DNA of 64,000 nucleotides from NCBI GenBank assembly GCA_009829735.1, contig CM020618.1, positions 9,267,119 through 9,331,118 on the forward strand. The letters run 5' to 3'. The position numbers and the translations under genes were made by a program. A model generated the notes under the pieces. It saw nothing but the letters and a program-made list of their open reading frames with translations. It was not told the DNA's origin and did not search any database. The DNA comes from Pyropia yezoensis. Its lineage: Eukaryota; Rhodophyta; Bangiophyceae; Bangiales; Bangiaceae. Shown here piece by piece: positions 3,098-56,430 of this stretch. Positions within the stretch are counted from its first letter, which is position 1; every line of letters begins with the position of its first letter.

Positions 3098-3834
3098 TGG
3101 TATAAAAGTCGATCCTCTCAGACACGTCAGTATCCCTCGGGGAAAAGGGACAGGTAACGCAGAAAGGGGAACTACGAGAGTGGTATGCCTGTTGCCTCAC
3201 GTGCCTGCTCGCAGAGCGAACATATACGCACGGTAGTGCATACGGGGAAGAGGAACGCAAACGCGCAGTTGTCTTTTTTCCTCAGGACGCGGGCCAAGGG
3301 CGCCTCGCTGTCCCTCTGAACGTGCATCTGGGTGAGCCTCGGCACTCTTGGCCAGGTAGCCCCCACATACCCCCGAATGGCCCCGACCCGAGTCTAACCT
3401 GGTCAGGTCGGGGGCAACTATCACTACTAATTCTATTCTCCCTCACTCATCTCACACTCGAATTCTCTCGAATCAAGTCCCTTAGAAATATGCAAGAACC
3501 CATCTGAAATCCCTCTCTAACGTGTGGGTAGCGTAGTCCATCGCATCCCAGTGCCTGGTAAGGGCCACGGCCGCCAACCATCCCCACACCGCGGGCGTGT
3601 CCTGGCACCTGGTGTCCCGTGGTCGCCATCCCGGGACGACGCCAAGTCAGGGCCAGGGATGCTACATAGCTCCCTCCTTAGTCTGGCACGTCCTCGGGCC
3701 GTACCAGGTGCCACCGTGCACAGCCTCGAGCGCGCCCACACCGGTTCCGAGGTCGAGCATCTTCACTCTGAGCCGTAATCACCTTCCACCTGTCCCGCCC
3801 ATTTCCCCTTTCTTCACCTTGGCCTTCCCGACCA
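3098..3834 (-). repeat. 3' LTR of element A
   Basis: This is a near-identical copy of 21529-22267. The boundaries were set where the two copies stop matching and where TG...CA termini appear. The copy lacks a GT dinucleotide after GACACG that the other copy has. No strong polypurine tract is visible on its internal side (3835 onward, read on the minus strand), unlike element B. Confidence 0.85.
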
Positions 3835-4040
3835 CCTTGGTTCTGGACGGTTTGCCCAGCTCCGAGATTCAGGTTGGGCCCGTGGCTGCGGTGGCGGGTG
3901 CTGTGGAGGCAGGACTCGGGTGGTCGTGCCGCTCTCCTGCCTCCGGTTCCTCGGGTGTTGACGCGAACGCCGGTCGTTACGGCGGAGGAGGCGGATGAAG
4001 TGCCCCCGGCTCCGGCGTCGCGCCCAGTCGAGACCCCCCG

Positions 4041-4895
4041 GTGGGTCTCCCAGAGATTCCTCTCGGCCACGACCACCTGGCGGCCCGGCGCTACACCACG
4101 GTGGTCGGGAACGTCAGCGCGGTCCAGTGCCAGCAGGACTGCCTGGCCATCTGGCGTAAGGAGCTCCAGCGCGGGGTCTTGACCGAGATGGACAAGACGC
4201 GCTTGTACACGGCGGACCAGATGCGCCTGGCGCAAGGCCGCTCCCAGAGCGTTTCCGGTTCGTCTTGGGTTGCCAATCTTGGGGACCTCCCCTTTGCGCT
4301 GGTGCTAGATCTTCCCTTGCCCGAGCGCCGAGTGTCTGCGTCCGTGCTCCGGTGGCCGGAGGAGGACGATAACGTCCGCCAGGCGCTCAAGGTTTGGGAC
4401 AAGGCGCTCAAGGGACCGGGGAGCTTGGCTTGTGATCTCCGTCCGGAGATGATCGCCCTGGGGCCGCCCTTCTTGACCCACATGTACTCCATGTTGTCGC
4501 CGTCGCGGGAGCAAGGCGAGCGGCGGGGGCGCCAGCGGGACTACATCGTGAGCTGAAACCACCAAGAGTTTTGACAGCTTCACAAAGCCAACCGGGCGGC
4601 GTACTACACCAGGGTCATCCCGCAGCAGTAGGAAGTCGAGATCCCGGTCGAGTTTGCTCCGTCCAGCATCCCTTTTACGTGATACGTCCTGGACGCCCTG
4701 ACCCAGGAGTCGATCAAGGGCTTCTTCCACTCGATCCCGTTCATGATGTACACTTCCGAGATGACGGTCCTGGCGGCTAACCACTGGCTTCACGAGGTCT
4801 TGGTGTCCAACCGGCTCTGGCTTCTCTCGGACCTTATGATGGTCTGGATTGTCGAGAACCTGACCGTCGACTTTTTGTGCAGCCAGGATGTGGAG
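4041..4895 (+). pseudogene. Extra antisense ORF of element A, first part
   Basis: This plus-strand reading frame is antisense to element A, between its integrase/chromodomain and its 3' LTR. It reads in one frame from 4041, with four nonsense codons at 4554 (TGA), 4572 (TGA), 4629 (TAG) and 4680 (TGA). It continues across the element B insertion into 14275. The stretch 4359-4802 aligns by eye with the antisense ORF of element B (13104-12684, minus strand). Shared landmarks, in order, are GPP[FY]L, Y[IL]V[ST], a short gap to [EQ]F, then YY, then VE[IV], and finally WLxEV. Frame conservation despite nonsense codons implies a once-coding gene. I recognise no domain. A frame change near 4000 leaves the start unresolved. 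Confidence 0.6.
4891..4895. repeat. Target site duplication of element B, left copy (TGGAG)
   Basis: TGGAG directly precedes the left LTR of B and is repeated exactly at 14275-14279 directly after the right LTR. Removing B plus one copy deletes 9384 bp, a multiple of three, and restores the frame of the antisense ORF of A. Confidence 0.9.
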
Positions 4896-5364
4896 TGTGG
4901 CAGTATTGACCCCCAGGTACGGGGGCAACACGTGCCATGCAAGGGGCGGCAGGCCACTAGCCTGATCCGTTCCTCCCCCTGCATTTGGGTCCGTATTCCC
5001 TAAGTTTGGGATTGTTAGCTTAGTAGTAAATCCAACTTGGATTTGAGGGTTTTCTGCATTTATCGTCTTGAATTTTCGTGTGGCCCGGTGGGCAGGTGCT
5101 GGGGTGGGAGATTCTGAGTGGCGAGATTCTGAGGGGACCCTGGGGGGATAAGGGGAGGGACAGCGGGGCTTGGCCCTGCGTCCCCGTCCCGACCAAGAAA
5201 CTGTTGGACCACACACCATCCTCTTGTTTGTCAGTGGGGGGTTTGCCCCACAACAGGGACAGAGTGTGTGCGACTTGCACTTCTTCCGGTTCCTCCGACA
5301 CGGGAGGCAGCCCTTGTTCACCGCCTCAACTTGGGTGCCGTGTGTGTAAGCGGTTTTTTCCACA
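4896..5364 (+). repeat. 5' LTR of element B
   Basis: It starts TGTGGCAG and ends CCACA. It matches 13806-14274 over 469 bp with about seven substitutions, most of them in the last 70 bp. It should contain the promoter and polyadenylation signal. No sharp TATA box stands out. Confidence 0.95.
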
Positions 5365-5383
5365 TTTGGTGGAGCAGCAGGGG
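5365..5383 (+). promoter_or_regulatory. Primer-binding site of element B
   Basis: TTTGGTGGAGCAGCAGGGG follows the 5' LTR directly. The TGG at 5367-5369 would pair with a tRNA 3' CCA end and the rest with its acceptor/T arm. The same 19 nt occur at the corresponding position of element A (21506-21524, minus strand). Confidence 0.75.
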
Positions 5384-5482
5384 ACAGAGGTAAACTTTAC
5401 CTCCGGGTGCACCCGGGTGTAGGGGGCCCTCTGTCTCAGAGAGCGGTGGACTTGGACCGTGTCATACGGATCGTCAGCCAAC

Positions 5483-7430
5483 ATGGCTAGCTCGGACCCC
5501 CCGTCGTCCGAGGAGTACACGGGTGACGCACGCACTTCAGTGCCTTTGAATACTGGTGAGACACAGGTGGGTTTACCTGGGGTCGCAGAGGGACTAGAGG
5601 TCCCTCAAGCCAGCAGGACTGGACGTGCGGGCGGGCAACAGGCCACCCCGACTCAGTCGGGAGTTCATTCGGGTGACACTTCTGATGTGGGTGGGCCGAA
5701 GTCTGGCCACCGTGTGGTATACTCAACGGGAACGTCCCAAGGGGTGAGGACTGTCCCCGCGGGTTCCACTCGGGTTGGAGCCAACTTTGGCTTGGAGCCG
5801 TCGTCAACTAGGCTTTCGGAGGACGGCGGACCTCCGTTGGTCGGCGATGGGCTCGCGCCCATGCCCCCGGTTGAGACCCCTGAGGAACGTGGTTACCCCT
5901 CAGGTGGACTCCCGGAGGCGGACCGAGACTCAACTGGAGTCGTCAATCCACTCCTCGCGGAAACTGTCCGTCGGGAGGCGACCAATGTGTTGCGGCAGAC
6001 TTTGCAAGACCTGGTGGTCACGATGACGAATACTATTCTGAACCAGATTGTGGCGAGTTTGCCAGATGGCCTTAATGTCCAGACCGGATCGGGGCTTCTG
6101 AGCCCGCAGGCGCAGGGGGAAATCCCTCCTCACGCCTATCTCGGGTCGCCCCGAACAGGGGGCGACACCTGTGACTCCCAACGAGGGAGCCACACCATAC
6201 TCGGTGGGGCGTACGCCCTTCATGGGGGAGTTTCCCCCGGAAACGCCGGCGGCTACACCAAGCGCGCCGCGCCAGACTATGGGCACTGTGGGTCAACTTA
6301 CGCCAGTGCCACAGCGGCTGTTCCCTCAACGTGAGGTGCCGCCCAAGATCCAGGTAGCCAGCCCGGTCTACCAGAGGATCTTTGATTGTGAGACCTACGC
6401 CCTCCACAACAAGTCGGTGGCGTATGGTCCTGACCAGGCCCGAGCCATGGGCGGTGCCAAGAAGAATGCACTTCACTCTTTTGGGCACAAAGCGGAGTGG
6501 GATGGAACTCCCCCCCTCCGTGTCTTTGAGTTCCTACGTCGTTTCAAAAAAGCCTGTGACGACAATGCCATAAGTGAAGGCATGGCTTTTTACATGCTAC
6601 AGGAGTTTACGAAGGGAGACCTGCGGACAGAACTCATGTCCGTCATGCCCAGCTCCTCAAGTGGAGGCGCTGGGGTGGTGACGTCCTATTGGGAGCTCGT
6701 CAACTGGTTGTTGAGGGCCATGGTTGATGAAGCGGCGTTGGCTTCTCAAGTCGAGGAGTTTACGCAAGCCCATCAGGAAGAGGCGGAGGACGAGTTGTCC
6801 TTTGCGGAGAGAGTCCGTAAGCTCAACAATCTTTGTGGGTTTCTTCATCCACAAGCTGTGGTGAAGAGTCGGTTGGTGGAGGGACTCCATTGGTCAGTCC
6901 GGATGGAGACCCGGAAGCATAACACAGCCCGGGCGACCCTGGCCGAGTTGGCTAGGTTCGCCTACCGCAGAGGCGAGGCCTACCGCAAGTTGCGGGAGGA
7001 ACAACGCCAGGAGCGTCAAGCCGAGTTGGCCAAGGAACGGGAGGAGGCGCGCCAGGCTAGAGAGTTGAGAGAGGCACGCCGAATCCGCAAGGAGAGGGTG
7101 GTAGCTGCCGTGGGAGCTTCCCAGGGTACCTCTTCGTCTTCCCCAGTTGGGAAGACCCCTCCGGGAACTGATAATCGGTGTTGGAACTGCAACTCCGATG
7201 GACACTGGGCATATGATTGCCCCAAGTTGAGTAAACGCATCCAACTACTTGTTAGGAATGCGAGTAAGAAGTTGGCTACGAACGAAGTACGTTCACGCCG
7301 CGAGGGTGGGTCTCGACCAGTGGTGGCGGTCGCCACACCCTCGGCGGAGGGGGCGCACACGTCGTCCTCGGACTCGTCGTCTTCCCCTTCGTCCTCAAAT
7401 TCGGACGCCAAGTCGGCGGGAAACGAATGA
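5483..7430 (+). CDS. Gag polyprotein of element B (one frame change)
   Basis: This is the structural protein that packages element RNA. The start at 5483 (MASSDPP) is preferred because element A has the same ACATGGCTAGC context at its own start. The N-terminal Pro/Ser/Gly-rich part reads in one frame to about 6150. The rest reads in another frame, open to 7430, with the switch near a GGGGG run at 6158-6162. The second part contains the Ty3-type capsid region (FEFLRRFKKAC, around nt 6520), a charged Glu/Arg-rich helix (about 6980-7110), a CCHC zinc knuckle (C-x2-C-x4-H-x4-C, starting at 7179) and a Ser-rich tail. It overlaps the protease frame by ATGA at 7427-7430. The frame change may be a real lesion, a programmed shift or a sequencing error in the homopolymer. 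Confidence 0.8.
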
Positions 7431-8068
7431 CCGTTGGAGCTGGTCGTCCGAAGCTCACAACGGCAGCCTCGGCCAAGTGGGTCAAGAGGACGAACCAACC
7501 GTGCCGCATACTGCGGCGACCTAAGGGAGTCCGCCCACCTCGGGTAGGACTCCCCAAGAACGTAAACCCACGTCGGGTCATCGCGGTGCTGACGGGTGAG
7601 AACTTCCAGGTGGCTGGACGGGTGCAACTTGCCCCCGGCCGCGCCTGTTGTGCCCGTATCGTACTTGATACCGGGTCAGGAGCCTCCTTGATACGCAAGT
7701 CGCTATTACCAAAGGAGATGGAGCTCCAACGCTGGAAGTCTAAAGCTGACCATCTGATCGATATCAATGGTGGGGTACTTCCCATCGTTGGTGCCGTGAC
7801 CCTACCAACGAGGTTGGGGACCCACGAGGTCGACGTGACCTATGGAGTAGTTGAGAATATATCGGTACCCCTGCTTCTGGGTACCCCTTATGTTGTTACA
7901 CAAGTGCCTTTGATTTGTGGCCCTGAGTATTGGGTCAAGTTGATGAATGGGGAAACCATCCCCATCCTTGGTAAGGGAAAGTCTGTGGCTCCTGTGACAG
8001 TCTCACAGTCGAAGCCTGTTTGCTCTGTGAGAGAGGGGGTTTACTGCTACCCTGCATTTAGCCCGTAA
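7427..8068 (+). CDS. Retropepsin-like aspartic protease of element B
   Basis: A 213-residue frame whose ATG overlaps the gag stop (ATGA). It contains the aspartic protease active site LDTGSGAS (Asp at residue 81) and the second conserved strand ending LLLGTPYV, as in Ty3/gypsy retropepsins. It matures the Gag and Pol polyproteins. The frame closes at TAA 8066-8068, just before the RT frame opens. Residues typical of the protease-RT linker can be read across 8040-8100 only by moving between all three frames, so one or two single-base changes probably separate protease from RT in this copy. Confidence 0.85.
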   Translation: MTVGAGRPKLTTAASAKWVKRTNQPCRILRRPKGVRPPRVGLPKNVNPRRVIAVLTGENFQVAGRVQLAPGRACCARIVLDTGSGASLIRKSLLPKEMELQRWKSKADHLIDINGGVLPIVGAVTLPTRLGTHEVDVTYGVVENISVPLLLGTPYVVTQVPLICGPEYWVKLMNGETIPILGKGKSVAPVTVSQSKPVCSVREGVYCYPAFSP

Positions 8069-8091
8069 GGTCACGTTGCCCCCCCAACTCG

Positions 8092-11000
8092 GTGGCGCAC
8101 GTTGACGTTGAAACTGATTATACGGGGAACGGGTTGGTGCACCCTCGCCCCCGTCTTGCTCGCAAGCACCAGGTGCATGTCGCCCTTGGCACGATGGAAT
8201 CCAAAGCCGGAGTCCCGTGGAGGATCCAGGTGATGAACCTGAGCTCGTCGCCCAAGTACTTCAAGTCGGGAGCCAAGTTCGGCTATATCGACCAACACGA
8301 GGGACCGGTAGTAGCGGTCACCCTCAACGCGGGCGCAAGTAGCGACCCGAAGTCCGGAAAGGAGAAGCATCAAGCCAAGTCGGCCGCCTCTCCTCGGCCC
8401 CATGTGAACATGGCGGGTGTCCCACCCAGGTTGAGGATTCAAGTTGAACGCCTCTTGGACCAATGTAACAAGTTGTGGGATGGTCAATTGGGACTCATGA
8501 GAGCCACCCAACACCGGATCGAGTTGAAGCCCGGTGCACCCCCTATACGCCAACAACCGTATAGGGGAGGATCCCGTTCAAGGGCCCTCGTTAAGGAGCA
8601 AGTTGCTCGCATGGAGGCCCTCGATGTGATCGAGGCCAGTAACGCCGAGTGGGCGAGTCCGGTGGTTATCGTCCCCAAAGATGATGGGACCCCCCGGTTC
8701 TGTATCGACTACCGTAAGCTCGACGAGAGCACGGTGAAGGACAGTTATCCCCTACCTACGATGGACGACTGTCTGGACTCCCTGGGGGAGGCGAACGTGT
8801 TCTCTACCCTGGACTGTAACGCGGGGTACTGGCAAATTCCCATTGCCCCGGAGGACGGGCATAAAACTTCCTTTACCTGTTACTGTGGTACCTACCAGTG
8901 CAAGCGTCCACCGTTCGGCCTGTGTAACGCGCCGGCAACTTTCCAGCGCGCTATGGACATGATTCTGGCCGGAGTACGGTGGCAGATCTGTCTCGTGTAC
9001 CTAGACGATATCATTGTGTTCTCCCGAAGTCCGGAGGAACACATTGGCCATCTTGGCCAGGTGTTCAAGCTACTTGCTGACGCCGGTGTGTCACTGAAGG
9101 CGAGTAAGTGCCACCTCTTCACTCAAGAGGTGGAATACTTGGGACATGTCGTCCGTCCGGGGCGTCTCAGTGTCAACGAGAAAAACTTGAGGGCCATCCG
9201 TAAGGCTCAGTACCCCCGGACCCAAACCCAGATGAGGAGCTTCCTCGGGATGTGCAACGTGTACCGACGTTTCACCAAGGGCTTCGCCAAGGTGGCGAAA
9301 CCGTTGAATGAGTTAGTGAGCTCAACGCTACCGAAGAACCTGCTTCCCCCAAGTCGGGTGGAGCAGGAATCCTTTGAGACTCTTCGGGACCTTCTGCTGA
9401 AGCCCCCTATCCTGGCTATTCCCAGGTTGGGAGGCCACTACATCCTGGATGTGGACGCTAGCTACGACCAACTTGGTTGTGTGTTGCTTCAGCAGCAGCC
9501 GGACAAGGAGTACTTGCCGGTGGGATACTTCAGCAAGGGGCTGAACTCGGCCGAGAAGAACTACGGAGTCACCGAGTTGGAAGGACTCGCAGTGGTGTGG
9601 GCGGTGACGTCCCTTCGTCACTACCTGGAGGGTGAGAAGTTCCTCATCCGCTGTGACCACCGCGCGTTGCAGTTCATCTTCAAGACGGACTGTACGAACA
9701 CTCGTCTCAACCGGTGGAGGGTGCGACTGGCACCCTTCAACTTTGATATTGAGTACCGACCTGGCAGGCAACATGCCCTTGCCGACGGCCTCTCTCGGGT
9801 ACCTACCGAGGGGCTGGACACTAACCCAGTCGATGAGGACATCCCCATCGTGGGGGTAGTCACGCACTCGGGTCAGGTGTTGAACCCCGAGGCGCCAGGG
9901 AACAATAAGTACTTGCCCCTGTCCCTGGACGAGGTGGTGAAGGCCCAGGCCGAGGATCCCTTCTGCAAGTCGCAGAGGGATACACTGGATACAGTGGCGG
10001 AGACGCGGTTCTTTCTGGGAGACGATGGCCTCCTCATGAGGAGGGGGGTATTCCAGGGGACCGAACAACTTGTCGTCCCCGCATCCCTCAAGGACAGTAT
10101 CCTTGAGAGGGAGCATAACGCTCCCACAGGTGGACACCTGGAGTCCAGTACACTGTTCCAGACCCTGAGGACCAGGTACTACCGGCCTTCCATGGTGGTG
10201 GACATCTACAGTTGGGTGGCTGCCTGCACAAGTTGTGCACAGAACCGTCTGATGGAACGGCGGCCTACTACGGCTATGCTATTGTTCCCGGCCAAGGAGC
10301 CCTTTGCCGCGTTGGCGATGGACATCCTTGGGCCACTGCCAGTGACCGAGGAGGGCAACAAGTACCTCCTGGTTACCTGTGACCGCTTCACGAAACTTAC
10401 GCGAGCGATCCCACTGGCAGAGATCACGGCCATGTCGGTCGTGTCAGCCTTCCTAGATCACTGGGTTGCGGCGTATGGCATTCCGGATAGTACACTATCG
10501 GACAATGGACCGCAATTTGCGTCTGTACTGTTTCAGGGAGTGCTGGATATGTTGGGGGTGCGGGCAAACTATGCCACCCCCTACCACCCACAAACTAATG
10601 GGCAGGTGGAGCGCTTCAACAAAACTATTGTTAGGCAGCTGCGCCACTATGTGAGTGAGCACGTGAAAACGTGGGACCATTACATTTCTATTCTTACCAC
10701 TGCCTACAATTCGCAGGTTCACTCATCTACCGGGGAAGTACCCCTCGCTTTTGTGACCCCCCGTCGCGTGCGGTCTATTGCCGTGCGGCGGCCGCTCCCA
10801 ACCAGGGAGGATGGTGGCAGGACGCCTACTCCTACTGAGAGTAAGGCGGAGTTCGCTGCTAGGCTTAAAAACCTCATCCCTAAAGTCAGGGCTGAGATGG
10901 ACAAAGCACAAAAGCGCTACAAGCGTACCTTTGACAGAAAGGTGCGCAACGCCAAGCATGTCCCCGAGCAGGGTGACTGGGTATTGGTCCACTCACACAC

Positions 11001-11412
11001 CCCAACTGGGGGTAAGTTGGTATTCCAGACGAAGGGGCCGTACCAATTCCTTCGTACTGATGGGCGGCGCTTCACCATCGAAAGTGACGATGTGGTCCGC
11101 ACAGTGAACGGACAGGATGTGGTCAAAGTTGCACCACCGCCTGCAGGCGACCCAGTTTGGGCGCGTGCGTTGGAAGCGTGGCGCCTCCCCTCACTGCCTG
11201 CGGCCAAGCAGGGCCCGCAGGAGTACGTGTCCGATAAGTTCATCGACCACGGCTGGGATGAGGACACTGACCGCCTCATGTTGAGGGTGCGTTGGTTTGG
11301 CTACAAAGCCAAGGATGATACGTGGGAGTATGTGGAGGACCTTCCCGCTGAGAAGGTCCGGGCCTACTGTGCCCGGAATGAGATAGACCCTTACAGCCCT
11401 CCCTCAACGTGA
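8092..11412 (+). CDS. Reverse transcriptase-RNase H-integrase-chromodomain polyprotein of element B
   Basis: A long open frame of about 1106 residues; 8092 is only the first GTG after a stop at 8059. The RT domain spans residues about 130-350 with the YLDD catalytic box at 303-306. RNase H follows with its acidic residues in DVDAS, TELE, CDHRAL and ALADGLSR. The integrase has an HHCC zinc-binding N-terminus, then D744, D804 and E840, giving the classic 35-residue D-E spacing. The C-terminus is a chromodomain (about 1042-1095, with the aromatic stretch LRVRWFGYK), which places the element among chromoviruses and probably targets integration to modified chromatin. There are no internal stops. 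It converges on the antisense ORF, with 111 bp between their stop codons. Confidence 0.95.
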   Translation: MAHVDVETDYTGNGLVHPRPRLARKHQVHVALGTMESKAGVPWRIQVMNLSSSPKYFKSGAKFGYIDQHEGPVVAVTLNAGASSDPKSGKEKHQAKSAASPRPHVNMAGVPPRLRIQVERLLDQCNKLWDGQLGLMRATQHRIELKPGAPPIRQQPYRGGSRSRALVKEQVARMEALDVIEASNAEWASPVVIVPKDDGTPRFCIDYRKLDESTVKDSYPLPTMDDCLDSLGEANVFSTLDCNAGYWQIPIAPEDGHKTSFTCYCGTYQCKRPPFGLCNAPATFQRAMDMILAGVRWQICLVYLDDIIVFSRSPEEHIGHLGQVFKLLADAGVSLKASKCHLFTQEVEYLGHVVRPGRLSVNEKNLRAIRKAQYPRTQTQMRSFLGMCNVYRRFTKGFAKVAKPLNELVSSTLPKNLLPPSRVEQESFETLRDLLLKPPILAIPRLGGHYILDVDASYDQLGCVLLQQQPDKEYLPVGYFSKGLNSAEKNYGVTELEGLAVVWAVTSLRHYLEGEKFLIRCDHRALQFIFKTDCTNTRLNRWRVRLAPFNFDIEYRPGRQHALADGLSRVPTEGLDTNPVDEDIPIVGVVTHSGQVLNPEAPGNNKYLPLSLDEVVKAQAEDPFCKSQRDTLDTVAETRFFLGDDGLLMRRGVFQGTEQLVVPASLKDSILEREHNAPTGGHLESSTLFQTLRTRYYRPSMVVDIYSWVAACTSCAQNRLMERRPTTAMLLFPAKEPFAALAMDILGPLPVTEEGNKYLLVTCDRFTKLTRAIPLAEITAMSVVSAFLDHWVAAYGIPDSTLSDNGPQFASVLFQGVLDMLGVRANYATPYHPQTNGQVERFNKTIVRQLRHYVSEHVKTWDHYISILTTAYNSQVHSSTGEVPLAFVTPRRVRSIAVRRPLPTREDGGRTPTPTESKAEFAARLKNLIPKVRAEMDKAQKRYKRTFDRKVRNAKHVPEQGDWVLVHSHTPTGGKLVFQTKGPYQFLRTDGRRFTIESDDVVRTVNGQDVVKVAPPPAGDPVWARALEAWRLPSLPAAKQGPQEYVSDKFIDHGWDEDTDRLMLRVRWFGYKAKDDTWEYVEDLPAEKVRAYCARNEIDPYSPPST

Positions 11413-11523
11413 GGGAAGGCCGAGCAACAGTGCCAAGAGAGTGCTTCAAGTCAAAGTGGTACGCAGAGTGGCTTTTAACTACAGCCCTAACCCTCACACT
11501 CTCACAACAAAGGCAGCTGCCAA

Positions 11524-13698
11524 CTAGGCATGCATGCTAGACTCTCCAGCCCCACGACCCTCGCCCTCACGTGGAGGCGAGCGGCGAGGCCCCCGGCGAT
11601 AACGCTCCCCACCAGTCGGGGGGGCCGGCGGCTCCGAGTCGGACCCGTTGCGCCCCTCACGGTCGCGCAAGTGGCGACGACCGCAGCTGCTCTTCTGCTT
11701 AGTCTTGCGCGCAGGTTGGCGACGCAGACGCCGGACCGACTCCGACTCTGACGGAGTCGAGGACTCCGAGACGGAGTAAGACAACTCGTCTTCCGACACG
11801 GAGGGAGAGCGCCGCGAGCGTCGGCGACGACGGCGAGGAGGCGAGTATGCCCGGCTCGCACGACGTTTGCCACGCCCAAGTGGGGCTGGATGGGGCATAA
11901 TAGCCCCAATGCGAGCCAACTCGGCCGTCATAAACTCCGCCACCGACTCGCAACTCGCGGTCGCCACTGCAGTACGCACGCGCTCCTCAAGTTGAGGAGT
12001 CTCGGAAGTTTGAAGGGTTGCGGTCGACGCGGCCAACCAGGAAATGGTACGCACCAACGTGGTGATCATCATCTCTGAGGTTAGAGGCGTGGGCGGTAAT
12101 ACCAACTTGGGGTATACCGTCAGGAGGATGGCCCCCAAGTTGGGGGACACCGGGGTGGACGACTCAACGGCCACGCTAATCGGGATGTCCCCGTGCGGCT
12201 GGTACGGGACAGGAGGAAGCGGAGGGGCACGCCGAGTTGGCGGGACCCGGGTGTAACTGCGACCCCGACTTGGGGCCCCCGCAGTGGGTTGAGTCATATG
12301 GTCATCATGTGAGGGCACGGCCATAACTATGGCCTTGTCCGGGGGTGGCGCAGTGTGGCGATCCACCCCCGGGGCATACGGGTAGTCCCCGATGCCCAAC
12401 CCCTCTCGTAGGACCACACGACCGTCGTGAAGTTCACGAGCGACCCATACGAACTGGCGAAGTGCGCCATCGTCCTTGGGCCCACGAGTGGGGCGGCGCA
12501 ACTTGTGCTCGATGCTCTCCCACTCGATAAACTTGTGGAGGCGGAGCATCTCCTCAAGTAGAGTGAGTTTTCCTGATGAGCACCCCTCAGCGACTAGCTG
12601 AGGGGTGAGCGGTTCCAAACCTTGGATAAGCCGGAGGGGGAGATGTCAGAGCATCCCCCGCCGCTGAACACAAGACACCCAGGTCGACATGACCTCGAGG
12701 AGCCACTGGGTGGCCAACATGGCCCACACCAGGTGATCAGGGCCAGCCGTCAACCTGACGGAGCCGAAGTGGTCAAGCAACCGTGGCAGCAACGCCGGGA
12801 ACCCGTAGAGGACCTCAACTTGAGGCCACCACTCGGGCTTCTTCGGATAGTACTGCTCCTCACTGGCAGCAGACTGCTGAGGAAACTGAAGTTGAGCCGA
12901 GGTCACCAAGTAGGGACCTCGCCGGAAGTCCTTCTCCATCCGCACATCAAAGTGATGAGTGTGCGGATCGGCCTCGTGAAGGTACGGGGGGCGAGTTGCC
13001 ACCGCGTCCCAAGTAAAGGTCGGCAAGTCACCGGGACCCGGGATAGTTCCCCCGCGGTCCACCATGGCCTTGGCCCGCTGTACGTCTTCGACCTCCTCAT
13101 CGTCCAGGAAGGCAAACTGGTCCGTCCTGAAGCCGGCAGGGAACCCGACCCTACGGGGATACTTCTCCCCTAGGCGGTCCCATACGCGACCTATGGCTGC
13201 GCCAAGTCGGCCACAGCGAAGAACAGTCAACCCCTCCTCATATAGAGGCCAAGCGGGGTAAAACCATCACCCCAAGGCCTCACGCGGGACAACTTGTCCC
13301 GCTTCCGGGGAGGATCCCGCCGTCAACCCAAAGCCGGGTGACGCGGGAGTCCCATCCCCCGGAGCGATCGCGGAGCCCCCGCCGAAAGTCCCGGCGGGCG
13401 CTGCACCGTAGGGGGTGTCCTCCATACGTTTGTCGAGAGAGTCCGTCTCCACCCCCGGGGTCGCCATGGCTCTCCCCAAGTTGGGGAGAGACGCCCTGGC
13501 TACAGCGGCACGAGACCCGCCTCGAGTTGAGGGGGACTCGGATCGTGGGTAGACGGGTGGCCTCCCCAGCGTGGGGCGGCCCAGTGGAAGGTGAAGGGGA
13601 GGTCGTGGTGATGGTGAAGTGAGAACCGGGGCGAGCAAGCTGCCGAGTGGGAAAGCTTGAGGAGAGGGGCGGTCAACGTGAGCGCCTCCACATCCGCG
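11524..13698 (-). pseudogene. Extra antisense ORF of element B
   Basis: Minus-strand frame between pol and the right LTR. One frame runs from about 13698 to the stop at 11524, broken only by TGA at 13267-13269 and TGA at 12646-12648. Coding-like sequence runs straight through both (for example WFYPAWPLYEEG after the first). The middle part (13104-12684) aligns with the antisense ORF of element A. The C-terminal third is Pro/Ser-rich, with an Arg-rich patch (RRRRRRSRRS, near 11830) that could act as a nuclear localisation or nucleic-acid-binding segment. An upstream TAA at 13699-13701 limits the frame. I recognise no known family, and it resembles neither gag nor pol. Whether the stops are lesions or readthrough sites is unknown, and an antisense promoter would be needed. 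Confidence 0.65.
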
Positions 13699-13792
13699 TT
13701 ACGTACTCAATGGGGGACAGCAAGTCGCGCCCCCAACGCCGAGACGTGCGTTTACGCACCCCCTCACAGGGCCGACCGGGTCGGTCGGAATT

Positions 13793-13805
13793 GAGGAGAG
13801 GGGAG
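13793..13805 (+). promoter_or_regulatory. Polypurine tract of element B
   Basis: GAGGAGAGGGGAG, thirteen purines in a row, abuts the right LTR. This is the expected plus-strand priming site. Confidence 0.85.
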
Positions 13806-14274
13806 TGTAGCAGTATTGACCCCCAGGTACGGGGGCAACACGTGCCATGCAAGGGGCGGCAGGCCACTAGCCTGATCCGTTCCTCCCCCTGCATTTGGGT
13901 CCGTATTCCCTAAGTTTGGGATTGTTAGCTTAGTAGTAAATCCAACTTGGATTTGAGGGTTTTCTGCATTTATCGTCTTGAATTTTCGTGTGGCCCGGTG
14001 GGCAGGTGCTGGGGTGGGAGATTCTGAGTGGCGAGATTCTGAGGGGACCCTGGGGGGATAAGGGGAGGGACAGCGGGGCTTGGCCCTGCGTCCCCGTCCC
14101 GACCAAGAAACTGTTGGACCACACACCATCCTCTTGTTTGTCAGTGGGGGGTTTGCCCCACAACAGGGACAGAGTGTGTGCGACTTGCACTTCTTCCGGT
14201 TCCCCCGACACGGGAGGCAGCCCTTGTACACCGCCCAAACTTGGGTGCCGTGTGTGTAAGTGGTTTTTGCCACA
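13806..14274 (+). repeat. 3' LTR of element B
   Basis: TGTAGCAG...CCACA, 469 bp, a near-identical partner of 4896-5364. The TSD TGGAG follows at 14275-14279. Confidence 0.95.
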
Positions 14275-15291
14275 TGGAGTACCAGGAACTCTTCCAGGAG
14301 ATGATCGACTTCCGGCGTCAAGTCCCAGTGCACGACCGGACCTTCTTGAGCTTGATCACGGACCAGAATATCCCGCGTCGGGATGGCTCGGGAGGTCTTC
14401 CTGCGCCGGCCGCTCTGGATCTTCTGCCGACTGGGCCGCCGGTGCAAGAGTCGGGGTGGGCTGCGGCGGTTGGTCGGGCGTCTGCAGCTGTTCAAGCTCC
14501 TCCGGTTCCTCCTGTTGCACCGGTAGCTTCGCCTTCGCCGTCGCCGGCGCGTGCACACCAGGCCCTTCCTGCACCGGTGCTTCAGGCTCCTCCAGCACCG
14601 CGTTTGCCTGCTGCGGCTCTTTTCGTTGCTCCCAGCGGTACCGTCCGGTCACCCACTACTCCGGCCGCTCCTCCGTACGCAACTTCCACGGCTGGTGGCG
14701 GCTCGGTGCTTACCCTTGAGTTGAGTACTCCTTTTTCCGGCAACGATGGTAGCCGTCCGGGTGTGGCGTCCTCAGGTCGGTTTGAGACTCCAGCGCCGAC
14801 TCCGCGCCTTTCCCGCTTTCGGGTACCCGACTGGTACCTGAGTCAAGGGGGCCCGGCCTGCGACCAGGACGACGTGGGCATAATTGAGGATCAGCTGGGC
14901 CGACTTCCGGTGCAGGTCGAGGGCGTCGGGTCTTTCTTCGTGCTGGGCACGTAATGCCAGCGTCTTGAACGACGTGGTCGACCAGGTGTTTGCTTGGGCG
15001 GACAGCGGCCAGATGTCGGACAGTCCGGTGGTTGGTGAGCTCCTTGCAACCTTGCCCCGGCATGGCTTGGCCCAGCGTTGGTCGGGGACTTTCACGAGTT
15101 TTCAGGAGCGTCAGCGGATGTACATGAAGGAGCGCGAGCGTCCGGCGGCTTCTAGTGCTGCTCCAGTGGCGGAGTATGTTGAGGCGTCTCGGCCGCCTCA
15201 CTACGTCATCCCGTCATCCTCTTGGTCCCGTCGTGCTGCTGACGCGGCGCTGGAGGACGCTCCCGCGGCGCAGCGTGCGGGCCGGGAGTAA
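14275..15291 (+). pseudogene. Extra antisense ORF of element A, second part
   Basis: This continues the frame interrupted by element B: the peptide before the insertion (SQDVE) runs directly into YQELFQEM once one TSD copy is removed. The frame goes on through a Pro/Ala-rich linker (about 14380-14680) to a stop at 14952-14954. Coding-like sequence then resumes in the next frame (NDVVDQVFAWAD, about 14968) to 15291, so a single-base shift near 14945 is likely. The protein therefore ends about 340 bp from the chromodomain of A, in convergent orientation, the same layout as in B. The function is unknown. Confidence 0.55.
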
Positions 15292-15628: not shown

Positions 15629-16786
15629 TCAGGAATCATCAGCCGGGTTGAAACCGAACCAGCGCACACGCAGGTACAGGCGTCCCTCCATGCAGGCATG
15701 GTCAACGAACTTGACGTAGACGTATTCTGGGCCTTTCTGTCGGGATAACCAGGGAACTGCGGCACGCTTGCGCCGGGTCAGGTCCCGTTTGCTTGGCGGT
15801 GGAGCTCGAGTGACGCGGTTGCTGCTCACCCGTTACGGAGAGCCATCCTCGTCTACGAGGAACGTCCAGCCTTCCGTCCTCAGAATTTCGTAAGGCCCAT
15901 TCGTCTTGGAGTCCAGCTTTCCCTGGGTCTTGCTATGATTGTCCACGAAGACCCAGTCGCCATCACCCAGTTCCTTGTTCTTTTCCCGGACACCCTTGAT
16001 CTAGTCCCGCTTGTATCGCTTCTGGGTCTTCATGATTGACTACTTGACTCGTGGGAGAAGGAGCTTCAGTTGTTCCAGGAAGTCGTCCTTTGCCTTGCGG
16101 CCCGACTTCAGGGCAGGCTGGAGACCGTCCGGTATTCTTTCCAGGGAGAAGTTTGTCAGCCGCCTTGGGGTGACAAAGTCTAGTGGAGCTACTCCTGCTG
16201 TCCGGTAAACACGAGAGTTGTAGGCTAGAGTGAGGAGAGCCAGCAGCTCTTCCCAGTCTTCTTGATGCTCTTCATCGTAGTGCCGAAGCATGTCCGCCAG
16301 GGTCCGGTTGAATCGTACCACTTGGCCATTCGTTTGTGGGTGGTACGTCGTAGTAAACAAGTTCTTGATACCCATCAAGTCAGAGACTCCTTGGAAGAAC
16401 AGGGATGCTAAAGTGGGGACCGTTGTCGATTAAGACGGAGGCCGGAGGGCCATAGGCAGCTATCCAGAACTCGTAGATGGCCGACGTAACGTCCAGGGCC
16501 GTGATGGTTCTTAGCGGGATTGCTCGGGTGAACTTGGAGAACCGGTCACAGATAATGAGCAGGTATAGGTTGCCACTGGATGTCTCAGGTATGGGCCCCA
16601 GGATGTCCATACTCAAGCTTGCAAAGGGTTCCGCCGTCGGAAGCAGGCGTAGCTTAGAAGTCTTATTCCTCTGGGTCAACCGGTTTCTTGCACAGGAGAT
16701 ACAGGCCTCAAGATGCTTGTGGACATCGCTTGCCATGGTTTCCCAGTAGTAGTGTCGCCGCATCGAGGCATACATCCGGTTGATGC
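15629..16786 (-). pseudogene. Integrase and chromodomain relic of element A
   Basis: Read on the minus strand, the integrase is recognisable from the zinc-binding part (HLEACISCARNR) through the first Asp (LSMDILGP), the second Asp (VLIDNGPHF) and the catalytic Glu region (HPQTNGQVVRFN). In the last motif the expected Glu is Val. A frame break lies near 16380. A separate frame at 15829-15629 carries a chromodomain (LRVRWFGFN) that stops early. Nothing before the zinc-binding part is retro-element-like: upstream of 16786 the sequence changes abruptly to a G-rich low-complexity stretch. The integrase matches element B in order and motif spacing but is clearly divergent. Confidence 0.8.
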
Positions 16787-19797: not shown

Positions 19798-21317
19798 CTA
19801 AGACAGGCGGTCCTCCTTCTGGCACAGCCAACAAGACCGGAAACGCTGGTTCTTGACTGTTTTAGGGGCCACCAAGGAAGGCCGCTCCTTGGAGACGAAG
19901 CCACCCCACTTTTCACCTGACGCCACGGGAGAGGTCTCGTCAACAGCCAGTACCGGTACTGGGTTGTCGCCTCCCTTATACTTGTCGGGTTCGGGACGAG
20001 CTCGCGACAACGGCTTGGGAGTCAATACCATGGGGGCCTGGAGTGCCTTGGCGTGCCAGTACTTGCCCTGGGTGTCGGCCTTCAGCTGCTGGAAGCTATG
20101 CTCTTGGTGTTCCTGGTTGTATTTCTCAGCATCAGCTTGAAGATACTCAGGAAGACCTTCGGAGAAGATCATCGTAAGCCTGTCCTCAGGGTCAACGTTG
20201 CCACAAGCCGTGCTCATCTCCCGAACACAGCGGGCGAAGGCCTCTGGAGTCTCTTGTCGTTCCATTGTTGCCCGGTTCAACTTGCCCACTGCCTTGCACA
20301 GGGAGTCCGCGTCAGCGTAGTTGGACAGGAGCCAGTTGACCGCTTCCGGATAGCTACCGACGGTACGCCGGAAGATGTGTCCGGCTGAGTCCGGAAGAAC
20401 TTGCGCGAACCGCTGTTCTGCTTCTCCGGTCATGAAGGTGACCAGAAGGTAGAGTGCCCTTCCCTCGGACACGTCATTGTCGTTACATGCTTTGACAAAC
20501 CGGCGCAGGAAGGCAAAGATAAGCGCCGGCTTCATCCCGGAAAACGTAGGATGTCCCCCGAACCTCGGCTGCATGCGCTGGTTCAGGGATGCCATCTTCT
20601 TGGCCATCCCCCGGGTGTAACCTTGGTCTTGGTCCTCCAGCCGGTAGTTGCCCCAATACGTGACCTCATTCAGGGAGGAGTCTCCAGCTTGGTGGGCAGG
20701 AAAGTCAAACTCGACTAGGCTGCATCGAGTGGGACCAGGGGATGCGTCCCAGTCGTATTCCTCCTCAGATCTGGAGGAACTGGTCTCGCTGGTGCTAGAG
20801 TGACGACGACGACGCCGCCGCCTCCGGCTGCTCCGGTTACTGATCTTGGAGCTCCCCGCCCCATGGGACGCCGCGGGAGGAAAAGCTTGGCCGGTCCCAG
20901 GAGTCGAGGTCTTAGGGAGACCCGTAGAACAAGTCGCAGCGGTGCCTCTGGCACTGCTAGTGCCCACAGGAAGAGGAGTATACACCCAGCTGCCATGTGT
21001 AGGTCCAGGAGTAAACACACCAGGGGGTATCCCTGGAAGTTCAGGAGTAAAAATGGCAGGAGGGAGTCGTCTGCTTCGAGCGGTCTCGAAGCCGTTGACC
21101 CTGGAGTCGCTCCCACAGGAGGGCCAGCCGGAGGAACGGGAGCAGGAGGTACTTGGCCGCCTGTAGACTGCAGCCCGCTACCGGGTGTCGCGCCCAGGTC
21201 TGCTTCGCCCGAAGGGACAACGCCGGGTTGGACACCGTCCCCCGCGGTGACCAGAGATGGGTCAAGGGACGCAGGGTCTACCCCTTCGGGCACCGTCGTG
21301 CCAGGGAGGCTAGCCAT
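19798..21317 (-). pseudogene. Gag relic of element A
   Basis: It starts at 21317 (MASLPG) in the same ACATGGCTAGC context as the gag of B. The N-terminal Pro/Gly-rich part is in one frame to about 21050. The main part, 21018-19798, is in another and includes an Arg run (about 20810) and the capsid region with FAFLRRFVKACNDND (about 20500), which aligns with FEFLRRFKKACDDN in B. The zinc knuckle is damaged: CWLCQKEDRLS has Arg where the His should be, and a TAA at 19798-19800 stops the frame before the final Cys. It is clearly a non-functional copy. Confidence 0.8.
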
Positions 21318-21528: not shown

Positions 21529-22267
21529 TGGCAAAAAACTCGATCCTCTCAGACACGTGTCAGTATCCCGCGGGGAGGAGGGACAGACAACACAGAAAGG
21601 GGAACTACGGGAGTGGTATGCCTGTTGCCTCACGTGCCTGCTCGCAGAGCGAACATATACGCACGGTAGTGCATACGGGGAAGAGGAACGCAAACGCGCA
21701 GTTGTCTTTTTTCCTCAGGGCGCGGGCCAAGGGCGCCTCGCTGTCCCTCTTAACGTGCATCTGGGTGAGCCTCGGCACTCTTGGCCAGGTAGCCCCCACA
21801 TACCCCCGAATGGCCCCGACCCGAGTCTAACCTGGTCAGGTCGGGGGCAACTATCACTACTAATTCTATTCTCCCTCATTCATCTCACACTCGAATTCTC
21901 TCGAATCAAGTCCCTTAGAAATATGCAAGAACCCATCAGAAATCCCTCTCTAACGTGTGGGTAGCGTAGTCCATCGCATCCCAGTGCCTGGTAAGGGCCA
22001 CGGCCGCCAACCATCCCCACACGGCGGGCGTGTCCTGGCACCTGGTGTCCCTTGGTCGCCATCCCGGGTCGACGCCAAGTAAGGGCCAGGGATGCTACAT
22101 AGCTCCCTCCTTAGTCTGGCACGTCCTCGGGCCGTACCAGGTGCCACCTTGCACAGCCTCGAGCGCGCCCACACCGGTTCCGAGGTCAAGCATCTTCACC
22201 CTGAGCCGTAATCACCTTCCACCTGTCCCGCCCATTTCCCCTTTCTTCAGCTTGGCCTTCCCGATCA
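21529..22267 (-). repeat. 5' LTR of element A
   Basis: This is the 739-bp partner of 3098-3834. On the minus strand it begins TGATCGGG and ends TTGCCA. Homology stops at both calculated ends. Confidence 0.85.
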
Positions 22268-25200
22268 CCTTGGTCCGCGTGCCGAAACGCAGTCCGCGCC
22301 GTGACAGCTCTTTAGATGTACCGAAGGCACGTTTTTTCCGTCGCCTTTGCCCAAGTGGCGCCTGAGTATGTGTTTCTAATATGAACATCCTGAAGGACAA
22401 AGCGGCCAGAAACGGCAAAATAAGTGACCTCTCCATTCAAAATGTCCCTATGTCGGACCCACGTGGCAAGGCTTCCATCATATTCCAATGAGATTCTGAT
22501 GAGAATCTGGTTGCTGAAAGTCTCGACGTTCTCAACTGCTTTGTCAGAAGCCACCTGACCTACGTATGTAGTTGCCAAAATGAGAAACGCCGCACTCGGA
22601 TGCAGCCGGGCATGGCCAGCGTGATGGGCAAGCCTCTCTAAAGAACTTTTTAATTCAGTAACCAGCGAAGCTCTGTACGATGTGGACAGCCTCAAGGATA
22701 ATTCGTGCCTCACAATCGCATTCCGCGTGACGTGAATGGAGGCGCTGATTCGTCAACTGCCGGGTCGCCCGGATGAAGCTTGAATAGCGCTCAGCCGCTG
22801 GTTCTGAAGCTGCGACTTTTGATTGGGTGATAAGTAGTCGACGAAGATGGTCCGAACTGTGCGCTTCTCTGTGATTAGGTGATGAATAGTCGACGAATGT
22901 GGTCCAAACTGTCCTGATCTGGAAGTGAAATACATGCTTTTGTATGACCTTCCTGAGAAAATTCAGAAGCGGAGCCCCGAGCGGCCGCAGATATGCGCAC
23001 GCCAGTTTAAGATTGGGTTCCTGCGGACTTCTGGCTCACCACCCCAAGAAGTAGAGTGAGGCACCAGAGACAAAAGAGAAGAAATGCGCTTCAAAAAGAG
23101 TAGCTCACAGCGCTTCTGATGGTGTACGGCTGCCGTTATTCCTCTGCCGTTCTGAGCCCAGGTGCCTGTTTGTGTCTCTGTCCAGCGTTCTTCAGGCTCT
23201 CTTTGTGCGTGTTTCAGGTGTTTTCACGCAATAAGAAGCACTCGTTCTGACCCAGAAGTCCGCTCTTGACTGGGCGTGAGCTGGCTGCTAGCAGCGAGCT
23301 GGCCAGATGCCTGCGGCGGCTGCAGCGGCCGGTGTCTGTGTCCTGCCCCCAGAGTCCGAAAGCTTCTTCCGAGTCCACGCGGATGCCCGCCATGCAACAG
23401 CGGTGTGCACTTGTGCTGGCGCGTATCGAACACCCTATAGGGTGGCAAGTAGGGAGGCTGCGGGCACGGGCGCCCTCGTGCTCGTGCCAAAGGTGTGCCG
23501 CGCAGCACGCGGCCGCGCGTTCACGTTCGAGCCACACCCCCCCGCTTCCCCTCTCCCTCCTCCGCAATCCCCCTCCTGACGTGCCGCACCGATGTGTGCC
23601 CCTTGCAACGCGACACATCCGACTGTACTGCCGGCGGAGTTCTGACGCTTGGGAGCAGTGCTAGAGGAGGACATGGCGAGAGGGGCTACAGGGCCAGGGG
23701 AGCATCAGGGGAGGGGGTCTGAACGTTTCAGCTCTGATCGAAAAAAGCTTCGCTATCAACCCCACTCGCACTTGGCTGGGGGCTACATTGCTTGTTCTGG
23801 ATACTCTTGGGATGATCGACAGTGAGTGTCAGACACCCACTCTTTTGACTTCATGAGTATCCGGTCCGAATCCAGAAATGGTTAAGAGTAGCCAAATACT
23901 CATGGCCATATGCTCGAGTGCAACCGATGGTCCACATCATGGCTGTTCAAGGGTATCAGATTTCGCCATGTGTATTGTATCGGAGAGTCTTACGTCACTG
24001 AGTATAGGAGGCTGACAGTGGACCGTGGCTGAGCCAAGTGTATGAAGCGGTGAGGGAAACACAAGTGTATTGCCCAAGGGTATTGTAGCGTAATGGGACC
24101 CCCCCCCCCCCCGTTACCAGAAACCACAACTGCGCACACAGAGACCACAGTCCGGAGCCCAGGAAGGAACAGGTAAGAGCCCTTGCTGGTCCACTCGCCC
24201 GCCACGGTACGAGGCAAAGGTAAACAGGACAAAAGCCCGAGGGAGATGAAACCCAAAGTACTGTTGATTTTACAAGATGGCCCCGGGGAGAACGCCGGAG
24301 CAACCCTCAAAAACCTCCCCCCCTCGCCCCTCCAGGGGCCCTGAGCGAGGCCCTCAGAAGGCGCCCCCAGCAGGCCAAGTGCCAACAAGGCACCGGCCGC
24401 TCACCGGGCCAACACACAAAAAGCCAGCGAAATCCCCCCACACACAGATGTCAATCCGCCCAAAAAAAACAGTGGAAAAAGGGGAAAGACATGAAATCAC
24501 GCAAGAAAAACAAATGTGAAGAATCAAACAAATAACCCGAAGGTCAGTATGCCCCAGCCCGGCAATTCTGCCCCTCCGGGTGACCATTCAGGGCACCTGG
24601 CGTGTCGCTACTGCCCCGGGCCACCGATGCAGGGATCCTCGGCCAGCGCGTGGCTCCTCGTAACGCTGCCAGCCGGGTCTCAATTCAGTCTCCCGGGTTC
24701 CAACAGTCTCAAAGGCTCATAACGCCACAGGTACTTACCCTTGCTCTTGATTAGGCGCATCTATGTATGACAAAACACGGACAACTCGAGTCTATTGATA
24801 CCCTTCAGGACGACTGACGTCTTCGAAAAAGACGGGAGTATCCTAAAAAAAACCACAGTGGAACGCATCGAGCCTGCCGTTTCCGGTGAACATTGAGCAA
24901 TCTGATGCCCATGGCCAATCACAAGCCTTGCACGGTGAAAAACGACGACCTTCAGGCCCGTTCGCAAAAGCTTTTCGCAGTTCGCGCGGAGCGCATCCAC
25001 GGGGCCCACAGCTGCAAAACGATTTGGGCTTGCTCCTCCGGACAAGAATAGTTTACAATCCAGAGAAGACAAGTAGAATGCATGGAAAGCTAGTCAGTGA
25101 CGTGGAAATTGGGCAATTATTCGCACTGACAGACTAACAACGACTACTGCCCTCTTTCGCGGCGAAGGCGCACAAGTCGCTGCTGCCACCTCCGCCACGA

Positions 25201-28200: not shown

Positions 28201-28476
28201 TTCCAGATCCTGAGTCGAAGGCCGGTCTCGGAGCCCGTAAATGCGGCGACTTGACTCGAGACTGCGCATCCGATTTGAACCAAGTGTAACCAACTGCGAG
28301 ACAGCCGGCCGCCGCCAAGGACCAGTGTGCCGCGCGCCCTCGTTCGCCGGCACCCCCTCCCAGTCCTCCCCAGTCGTCTTGGCCGTCATCCTCGCCCCGG
28401 CTGGACCCCACTGCCCTCCGCCCCCCTCCCTCCCCATTCACCGTGGTGGGGTGAGCTACCCCTGTGCAGTTGCATC
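22268..28476. other. Intergenic, no recognised gene
   Basis: About 6.2 kb without a frame I can assign. An ORF at 22312-22713 (minus, 133 residues) reads like protein but matches no family I know. A run of 14 C lies at 24099-24112. From 26850 to 27760 the sequence is very GC-rich, with long frames on both strands that look like composition artefacts. A 9-bp perfect hairpin, GAAGACCTC/GAGGTCTTC, lies at 28183-28203 near the Harbinger transposase. Confidence 0.5.
22821..22924. repeat. 52-bp tandem duplication
   Basis: Two diverged copies start GATTGGGTGATAAGTAGTCG (22821) and GATTAGGTGATGAATAGTCG (22873). The match fades over the last dozen bases of each unit. Confidence 0.65.
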
Positions 28477-56331: not shown

Positions 56332-56430
56332 CACGGCAGCGGTGGGCGCCCGCGGCGGCGGGCAGAGCGCGGCAGAGTGGGGAAGCGAAGGGGTCGAGTA
56401 GGGAGGTGTGGCCAGTGAAAGGCAGCGATT

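What the first reader, a model, noticed from the sequence alone, without database searches (positions are those of the whole stretch)
4041..15291. A conserved antisense extra ORF shared by two chromovirus families
Element A (minus strand) and element B (plus strand) each carry a long ORF antisense to their own gag-pol, between the chromodomain and the 3' LTR and convergent with pol. The two proteins align by eye (A 4359-4802 plus strand, B 13104-12684 minus strand) with landmarks in the same order and spacing: GPP[FY]L, Y[IL]V[ST], YY, VE[IV], WLxEV. Both end in Pro/Ser-rich tails. A gene kept in the same antisense position in two diverged families is unlikely to be chance. It may be an undescribed accessory protein (env-like, regulatory or chromatin-related). 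Antisense ORFs are known in some plant LTR elements; this one matches no family I recognise.
Basis: partly seen in the sequence, partly recalled or inferred. Interest (0 to 1): 0.88.

Follow-up and report, generated by a model that had tools for sequence, protein, structure and literature searches.

The report
Antisense accessory gene in algal retrotransposons
Jumping genes of the nori seaweed carry, on the strand opposite their normal genes, a long extra protein gene that natural selection has kept in at least five diverged families; what the protein does is unknown, but it looks like a real gene.

Summary
Both window copies are broken (B: two stops; A: stops, frameshifts, B inserted in it), but genomic relatives keep one open antisense frame, 724 aa (B) and typically 760-850 aa (A). 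Three further families (C, D, E) of the same pol clade carry a homologue in the same convergent position; two other Gypsy families examined do not. Codon-level selection is strong: pN/pS in B is 0.99 upstream of the ATG, 0.02-0.04 in the core, 0.31 in the tail; in A 0.71, 0.13, 0.34. Homologues stand as 'hypothetical proteins' in Pyropia vietnamensis; the genome fits Pyropia yezoensis. No convincing Pfam, NCBIfam or PDB match, no membrane segment, no gag relationship; AlphaFold models were poor. [quoted passage not shown] this is a separate protein family in red-algal chromoviruses. Most likely a nuclear trans-acting regulator with its own antisense promoter: inferred, not shown.

The parts
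11524..13698 (-). Element B antisense frame (stop-to-stop in relatives; inferred start codon ATG at 13467-13465, stop TAG 11526-11524). This copy has two internal stops (13267-13269, 12646-12648).
   Evidence: 92% identical to a 724-aa open copy (L012); 24 of 30 fetched copies have the full 724-aa frame
12684..13104 (-).
   Evidence: BLASTP E 5e-7 with A; pN/pS 0.02-0.04
3629..4890 (+). Element A antisense frame, first piece (leader lies in the A 3' LTR; core from 4023); broken by stops and frameshifts; no ATG between 3780 and 3919, where open copies have their start
   Evidence: 80% identical to residues 131-421 of a 779-aa open copy (L050)
14275..15288 (+). Element A antisense frame, second piece on the far side of the B insertion
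   Evidence: matches residues 421-779 of the open copy with a frame change near 14930-14950
4896..5364 (+). Element B 5' LTR (469 bp)
   Evidence: 7 differences from the 3' LTR
13806..14274 (+). Element B 3' LTR (469 bp)
4891..4895 (.). Target-site duplication TGGAG (left); right copy at 14275-14279. Shows that B inserted into the A antisense frame
6222..7430 (+). Element B gag frame with CCHC zinc knuckle
8194..11412 (+). Element B pol: RT, RNase H, integrase, chromodomain-like C-terminus (Chromo E 0.0009, below Pfam's cut-off)
15632..16775 (-). Element A pol remnant: integrase and C-terminus
   Evidence: 43-53% identical to B pol
19798..21177 (-). Element A gag-like frame (33% identical to B gag over 181 aa)
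3098..3841 (-). Element A 3' LTR (edges from blastn, not refined)
   Evidence: 96.6% to 21529-22274
21529..22274 (-). Element A 5' LTR

Best explanation
Shown: a clade of chromovirus-like Ty3/Gypsy elements in this genome carries a third protein gene beyond pol, antisense to gag-pol and converging on pol (in A and B demonstrably before the 3' LTR), present in families A-E and still selected as protein. The selected region begins at or near an ATG that is about 340 bp from the 3' LTR in B and, judged from copy L050, close to the inner edge of the LTR in A. Inferred: it was gained once before A-E split; it is transcribed from its own antisense promoter in or beside the 3' LTR; and its soluble, mostly helical core (about 200 residues, followed by a variable Pro/Arg/Ser- or Pro/Ala-rich tail) acts in trans, most likely in the nucleus, to regulate the element's own expression or the fate of its genomic RNA or cDNA, as suggested for antisense proteins such as Grande gene23 and, by analogy, HBZ of HTLV-1.
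For: One open frame in relatives: 24 of 30 fetched B copies have 724 aa, 19 of 30 fetched A copies at least 705 aa; 144 E copies at E<=1e-172 of 146 scored, 67 with exactly 909 aa and 121 with 800 aa or more by my count of the list; 6 C copies with 995-1085 aa. Homology A-B: BLASTP E 5e-7 (14); hhalign of A against B plus its database relatives 95%, E 3.7e-8, against those relatives without B 93%, E 2.8e-7; B plus relatives against C+D 93% and against E 94%; six reversed controls 0.1-0.6% (57). Selection: pN/pS 0.39 (A, 26 copies) and 0.18 (B, 22 copies); the other frames exceed 1.1 except the mirror frame (0.45, 0.22), which has 12-29 stops in the 5 copies checked; by region B 0.99 / 0.12 / 0.02 / 0.04 / 0.11 / 0.31, A 0.71 / 0.36 / 0.13 / 0.37 / 0.34, the first figure being upstream of the ATG. 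Convergent in A, B, C and E with 145, 111, 156 and 480 bp between the two stop codons. Same pol clade: 49-64% pol identity among A-E against 30-36% to the other lineage. No membrane segment.
Against: No transcript, protein, localisation or activity is shown. No nuclear signal is common to the families; an RS-rich run is beyond chance only in C (0 of 500 shuffles; not in the 12 other proteins tested). A with C+D, A with E, and C+D with E are not linked directly by profile comparison (under 1%), only through B and its relatives. The copies used for pN/pS were the best-scoring ones, which biases towards intact copies, and the region bins were cut at the suspected ATG, not scanned. The window copy of A lacks an ATG where L050 has one (121).
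Confidence: 0.55

Rival explanations
1. Same gene, but the protein works later in the cycle: a particle, cDNA or integration-targeting factor rather than a regulator of expression.
For: A constrained core with variable tails, predicted mostly helical though with poor confidence, suits a structural or adaptor protein as well as a regulator; the chromodomain beside it is already a targeting module (established knowledge).
Against: Antisense expression would uncouple it from Gag-Pol translation and packaging, which is awkward for a particle component (inference). No gag relationship.
Confidence: 0.25
2. The antisense RNA is what matters (dsRNA or interference with the sense transcript); the protein is a by-product.
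For: Antisense transcripts of this kind are discussed for other elements (PMC7264820).
Against: Selection follows the codons; core pN/pS is 0.02-0.13 against 0.71-0.99 upstream of the ATG.
Confidence: 0.04
3. A host gene or a piece of another mobile element captured by an ancestral element and merely carried along.
For: Origin is unknown; homologues are annotated as ordinary hypothetical genes in P. vietnamensis.
Against: Kept in five families whose pol proteins differ by about half; none of the 32 database homologues has a precomputed Pfam domain. Capture as origin is possible; passive carriage does not fit the selection seen.
Confidence: 0.08
4. Env-like protein.
For: Position between pol and the 3' LTR.
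Against: Antisense; no 19-residue window with Kyte-Doolittle mean of 1.6 or more in 11 of 11 proteins.
Confidence: 0.02
5. Spurious frame of a GC-rich genome.
For: The window is 63% GC and long chance frames are common (mean longest 204-235 aa per region).
Against: Length, homology across families and codon-level selection.
Confidence: 0.01

Closest known systems
Antisense aORF-3R of plant LTR elements (maize Grande gene23, rice RIRE2, Phaseolus PvRetro13)
   Same: Between pol and 3' LTR, antisense, in most copies of a family, function unknown; Grande's is a nuclear protein with its own promoter (PMC7264820, parts 1 and 2 of 3 read)
   Different: Flowering plants; no sequence of theirs was at hand to compare; here a red alga and chromodomain-type elements
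Retand antisense ORF with Transposase_28 / TRP28 (PF04195)
   Same: Antisense ORF that marks a whole lineage (97% of clusters; passages, with parts of the abstract, and the Discussion of PMC11963269 read)
   Different: PF04195 gives no match at E<=10 in the whole genome nor in the proteins scanned; Retand is a non-chromovirus lineage, and the paper says that TRP28 appears only in flowering plants
brtn, antisense gene of fungal Boty elements
   Same: Additional antisense gene of an LTR element outside plants (PMC7264820; BcGypsy1 brtn in PMC8365987, passages)
   Different: Fungal; sequence not available here, homology not tested
HBZ of HTLV-1
   Same: Antisense gene of a retrovirus, nuclear protein (PMC11963269, passages); read from an antisense promoter in the 3' LTR (PMC7264820)
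   Different: No sequence relationship claimed or tested; analogy only
Ogre extra ORFs with plant mobile domain (PF10536)
   Same: Extra ORF typical of one Gypsy lineage (PMC6317226, passages)
   Different: No PF10536 match in the proteins scanned; the genome-wide search rang nowhere, controls included, so it is inconclusive

Membership tests
Antisense additional ORF between pol and 3' LTR (aORF-3R, eORF-3'R) | Lies between pol and the 3' LTR | tested here: met
   A and B in the window with both LTRs; in C, D and E the frame lies beyond pol, but the 3' LTR was not located
Antisense additional ORF between pol and 3' LTR (aORF-3R, eORF-3'R) | Antisense to gag-pol | tested here: met
   Five of five families
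Antisense additional ORF between pol and 3' LTR (aORF-3R, eORF-3'R) | Present and conserved in most copies of the family | tested here: inconclusive
   Long frames in most of the best-scoring copies; the tool scores only the best candidates, so the rate over all copies is not known
Antisense additional ORF between pol and 3' LTR (aORF-3R, eORF-3'R) | Transcribed antisense from its own promoter | not testable with these tools
   No RNA data
Transposase_28 / TRP28 antisense proteins of Retand | PF04195 domain | tested here: not met
   0 matches at E<=10 in the genome; 0 in the proteins scanned. A relationship below HMMER sensitivity is not excluded
Transposase_28 / TRP28 antisense proteins of Retand | Carrier is a non-chromovirus (Retand) element | tested here: not met
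   Chromodomain matches at the end of pol
Plant mobile domain (PMD) proteins | PF10536 domain | tested here: inconclusive
   No hit in the proteins; genome search rang nowhere, controls included
Chromovirus (carrier) | Ty3/Gypsy order RT-RNase H-integrase | tested here: met
   B and A pol; C, D and E by alignment to B pol only
Chromovirus (carrier) | Chromodomain at the integrase C-terminus | tested here: inconclusive
   D is above Pfam's cut-off (39.8 against 25.1 bits); A, B and C match at E 3.5e-4 to 9e-4 but below the cut-off; E only at 0.083
Env-like protein | Transmembrane segment | tested here: not met
   hydropathy only
Gag duplicate | Homology to gag of the same elements | tested here: not met
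   hhalign 0.1-1.8%, BLASTP best E 0.21

The most novel reading that the evidence does not exclude
The red-algal antisense protein and the TRP28/aORF-3R proteins of land-plant Gypsy elements descend from one ancient antisense gene, so that an HBZ-like antisense regulator was part of Ty3/Gypsy elements early in the red-green plant lineage and was lost or became unrecognisable elsewhere.
Probability: 0.07. Interest if true: 0.85.

Novelty: new variant of a known kind. Interest (0 to 1): 0.6.

Why it matters
Antisense genes of LTR elements are known from flowering plants, a fungal group and some retroviruses, and their function is unknown in the retrotransposons. Here is a further case in red algae: a clade-wide, unnamed protein family with strong codon-level constraint, in high-copy families (B, E) whose best-scoring copies are nearly identical, so the question whether an antisense product serves the element can be put directly to RNA and protein data. 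It also matters for annotation: homologues are entered as 'hypothetical proteins' in Pyropia vietnamensis.

Tried and rejected
Rejected: gag duplication, env-like protein, chance frame, sense-strand coding with the antisense frame as its mirror (the three sense frames have 7-29 stops in the 5 copies checked), and a shared RS domain as a family trait (beyond chance only in C, 79).

L075 showed no antisense frame but also no pol end, so it does not count either way. In L074 the homologous frame belongs to a neighbouring minus-strand element (E), not to the element whose RT hit I had chosen, and that one stays unassessed. L069 showed none, but a B-type gag begins soon after its pol, so L080 was fetched: the same family has 1.8 kb between pol and the next gag and no homologue. 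L070 shows a 406-aa minus-strand frame beyond pol without similarity to the antisense proteins. I also corrected the A spacing from 146 to 145 bp (121), and 'most' E copies with 909 aa to 67 of 144.

Full report
Where this is. The window is G000:C1:9267119-9331118 of a 107,475,971-base genome in 11 contigs. The three contigs read are 43.59, 34.33 and 29.39 Mb, which agrees with the three Pyropia yezoensis scaffolds of 43.6, 34.3 and 29.4 Mb in PMC7423979 (passages read). That paper says 48.0% of the genome is repeats, with LTR retrotransposons predominant.

The observation. Element B is flanked by 469-bp LTRs (4896-5364, 13806-14274) with seven differences and by the duplication TGGAG. It lies inside the antisense frame of element A, whose LTRs are 3098-3841 and 21529-22274 (96.6%). 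Each element has a frame opposite to gag-pol between pol and the 3' LTR. In the window both are broken: B by two stops, A by stops, frameshifts and the B insertion. The genome holds open frames. The 206-aa B piece matched 150 scored copies of 1872 candidates, about 115 of them in one 724-aa frame by my count of the list; the 185-aa A piece matched 150 scored of 577 candidates, with frames up to 854 aa. Of the 30 copies fetched of each, 24 B copies have the 724-aa frame and 19 A copies at least 705 aa. These are the best-scoring copies, not a random sample. The longest chance frame in 1000 simulations was 486 aa (B region) and 452 aa (A region).

Homology. With low-complexity filtering on, E is 7e-6 and 2e-4 in the two directions; reversed proteins gave at best 0.01 and 100 shuffled proteins at best 0.46. 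Profile comparison gives 95% and E 3.7e-8 for A against B plus its database relatives, 93% and E 2.8e-7 for A against those relatives without B, but only 59% (E 9e-5) for A against B copies alone. Six reversed controls gave 0.1-0.6%.

More families. I fetched the stretch beyond pol of seven elements chosen by frame length from 150 scored RT hits (3927 candidates). Four of seven loci hold a homologous frame: L071 (family C, 995 aa), L072 and L073 (family D; 761 codons to the end of L073) and L074 (909 aa, belonging to a neighbouring minus-strand element, family E). Three do not: L069, L070 and L075, of which L075 is uninformative. BLASTP links B with C, D and E at E 1.4e-5, 3.7e-8 and 2.7e-8, and C with D at 7e-11 and 7e-18 in the two directions. 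A with C+D, A with E, and C+D with E are not linked directly by profiles. Family E has 144 copies at E<=1e-172 (146 scored of 2375 candidates), 67 with a frame of exactly 909 aa and 121 with 800 aa or more; one has a stop inside the match. C has 6 copies at E<=1e-120 (106 scored of 1135) with 995-1085 aa.

Carriers. The pol proteins of A-E are 49-64% identical to each other and 30-36% identical to the L001/L004/L005/L008 lineage (a second E copy, 99% identical, is included). That other lineage has chromodomains too (L069 and L070). In L080 only 1.8 kb lie between its pol and the next gag, with no homologue. C and D are sisters in the pol tree (support 100), as they are closest in the antisense protein; the other nodes among A-E are weak (37-38). 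One gain in an ancestor of A-E is the simplest reading; with a single non-carrier lineage in the tree it is not proven. The distance between the convergent stop codons is 111 bp (B), 145 (A), 156 (C) and 480 (E). The D copy in L072 stops 313 bp from the pol stop, but its last residues depart from those of relatives, so the true end of D is not known. Since pol is about half identical among families and the antisense core under 30% in aligned stretches, the antisense protein evolves faster than pol, yet under constraint.

Selection. Nei-Gojobori counts on the antisense frame gave pooled pN/pS 0.39 for 26 distinct A copies (4 of 30 dropped: frame under 450 aa) and 0.18 for 22 distinct B copies (5 of 30 dropped: frame under 700 aa; 3 identical ones collapsed). 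The other frames gave 1.1-2.2, save the mirror frame on the opposite strand (0.45 and 0.22), where third positions coincide. That frame is closed: 12-17 stops in three A copies, 29 in each of two B copies. By region, B (22 copies): residues 1-77, before the ATG at 78, 0.99; 78-140 0.12; 141-280 0.02; 281-460 0.04; 461-590 0.11; 591-724 0.31. A (19 copies of at least 700 aa): 1-75, up to the ATG at 75, 0.71; then 0.36, 0.13, 0.37, 0.34. The bins were cut at the suspected ATG rather than scanned. The constraint sets in there and peaks in the core shared by the families. This is the best evidence that a protein is made.

Outside this genome. Protein searches found 32 proteins in all (the weakest at E 0.029), some of them near-copies of B, D or E, none with a precomputed Pfam domain. 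They are B-like proteins including four Pyropia vietnamensis 'hypothetical proteins' (MMPV_009578, 009580, 004663, 001338), and D-like and E-like proteins including P. vietnamensis MMPV_005735, two EukProt entries and JGI sequences (typed). The first and third searches scored only the 8000 candidates sharing most words. Three viral-contig scans gave no relative. The hosts of most of these proteins are not named, so the spread beyond Pyropia is open.

What it is not. No convincing Pfam, NCBIfam or PDB match. PF04195, the antisense domain of Retand, has no match in the genome. No membrane segment by hydropathy; no relation to gag. AlphaFold gave poor models and fold comparison nothing of use.

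How it may work. From position, strand and start codon I infer a separate antisense transcription unit with a promoter in or beside the 3' LTR, converging on pol. In A the leader of the frame runs through the LTR (residues 1-46 match 3629-3766 and 22062-22202), and by extrapolation from L050 the ATG lies near the inner edge of the LTR; the window copy of A has no ATG there. A soluble core with variable charged tails, made apart from Gag-Pol, fits a trans-acting regulator. Grande gene23 is nuclear and has its own promoter (PMC7264820, parts 1 and 2 of 3 read), and HTLV-1 HBZ is an antisense-encoded nuclear protein (PMC11963269, passages). Function remains inference. Overlapping convergent transcripts could also make double-stranded RNA; the selection on codons says that this is not the whole story.

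Known or new. [quoted passage not shown] I found no report of them in red algae. The searches were 'antisense ORF, retrotransposon, Rhodophyta, algae' (43 papers with three of four terms, 12 listed, none of the 12 with 'antisense ORF'), 'retrotransposon, Bangiales, antisense' (no paper) and 'chromovirus, red algae' (seven papers, seen as a listing); they cover only the open-access papers held here. Hence: a new protein family, a new variant of a known kind.

Noticed in passing
L071:2-1489 (+), residues 347-416: In family C the pol C-terminal extension after the chromodomain matches DNA N6-adenine methyltransferase (Dam, PF05869, E 2e-7, 31.2 bits against a cut-off of 28.1): a retrotransposon polyprotein with a Dam-like domain.
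   Followed up: no
window 33152-52480 (+): One open frame of 6442 aa, a UBR4/BIG-type E3 ubiquitin ligase homologue (E3_UbLigase_R4 E 5e-120; UBR box and ZZ finger just below their cut-offs), with no interruption of the frame.
   Followed up: partly
window 449-1558 (+): Broken Tc1/mariner-type transposase: HTH_Tnp_Tc3_2 and DDE_3 matches below their cut-offs in two separate frames.
   Followed up: partly
L070:1847-2593 (+) and L080:1813-2196 (+): In the other Gypsy lineage a frame ahead of gag has the look of a C2H2-type zinc finger (by eye, recalled motif).
   Followed up: no
L070:1315-2532 (-): A 406-aa minus-strand frame lies beyond pol of the other lineage too, unrelated to the antisense proteins by BLASTP; not tested for selection.
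   Followed up: no
window 28279-29259 (+): 326-aa frame that reminded me of a PIF/Harbinger-like transposase (recalled); Pfam finds nothing.
   Followed up: partly
window 54979-56661 (-): Short-chain dehydrogenase gene (adh_short E 5e-30).
   Followed up: yes
L072:3660-3750 (+), family D: The last residues of the D frame in L072 depart from those of D-like database proteins such as P0018 and P0019, and L072 has a 500-base N run in the frame, so the end of the D gene and its distance from pol are unsettled.
   Followed up: partly
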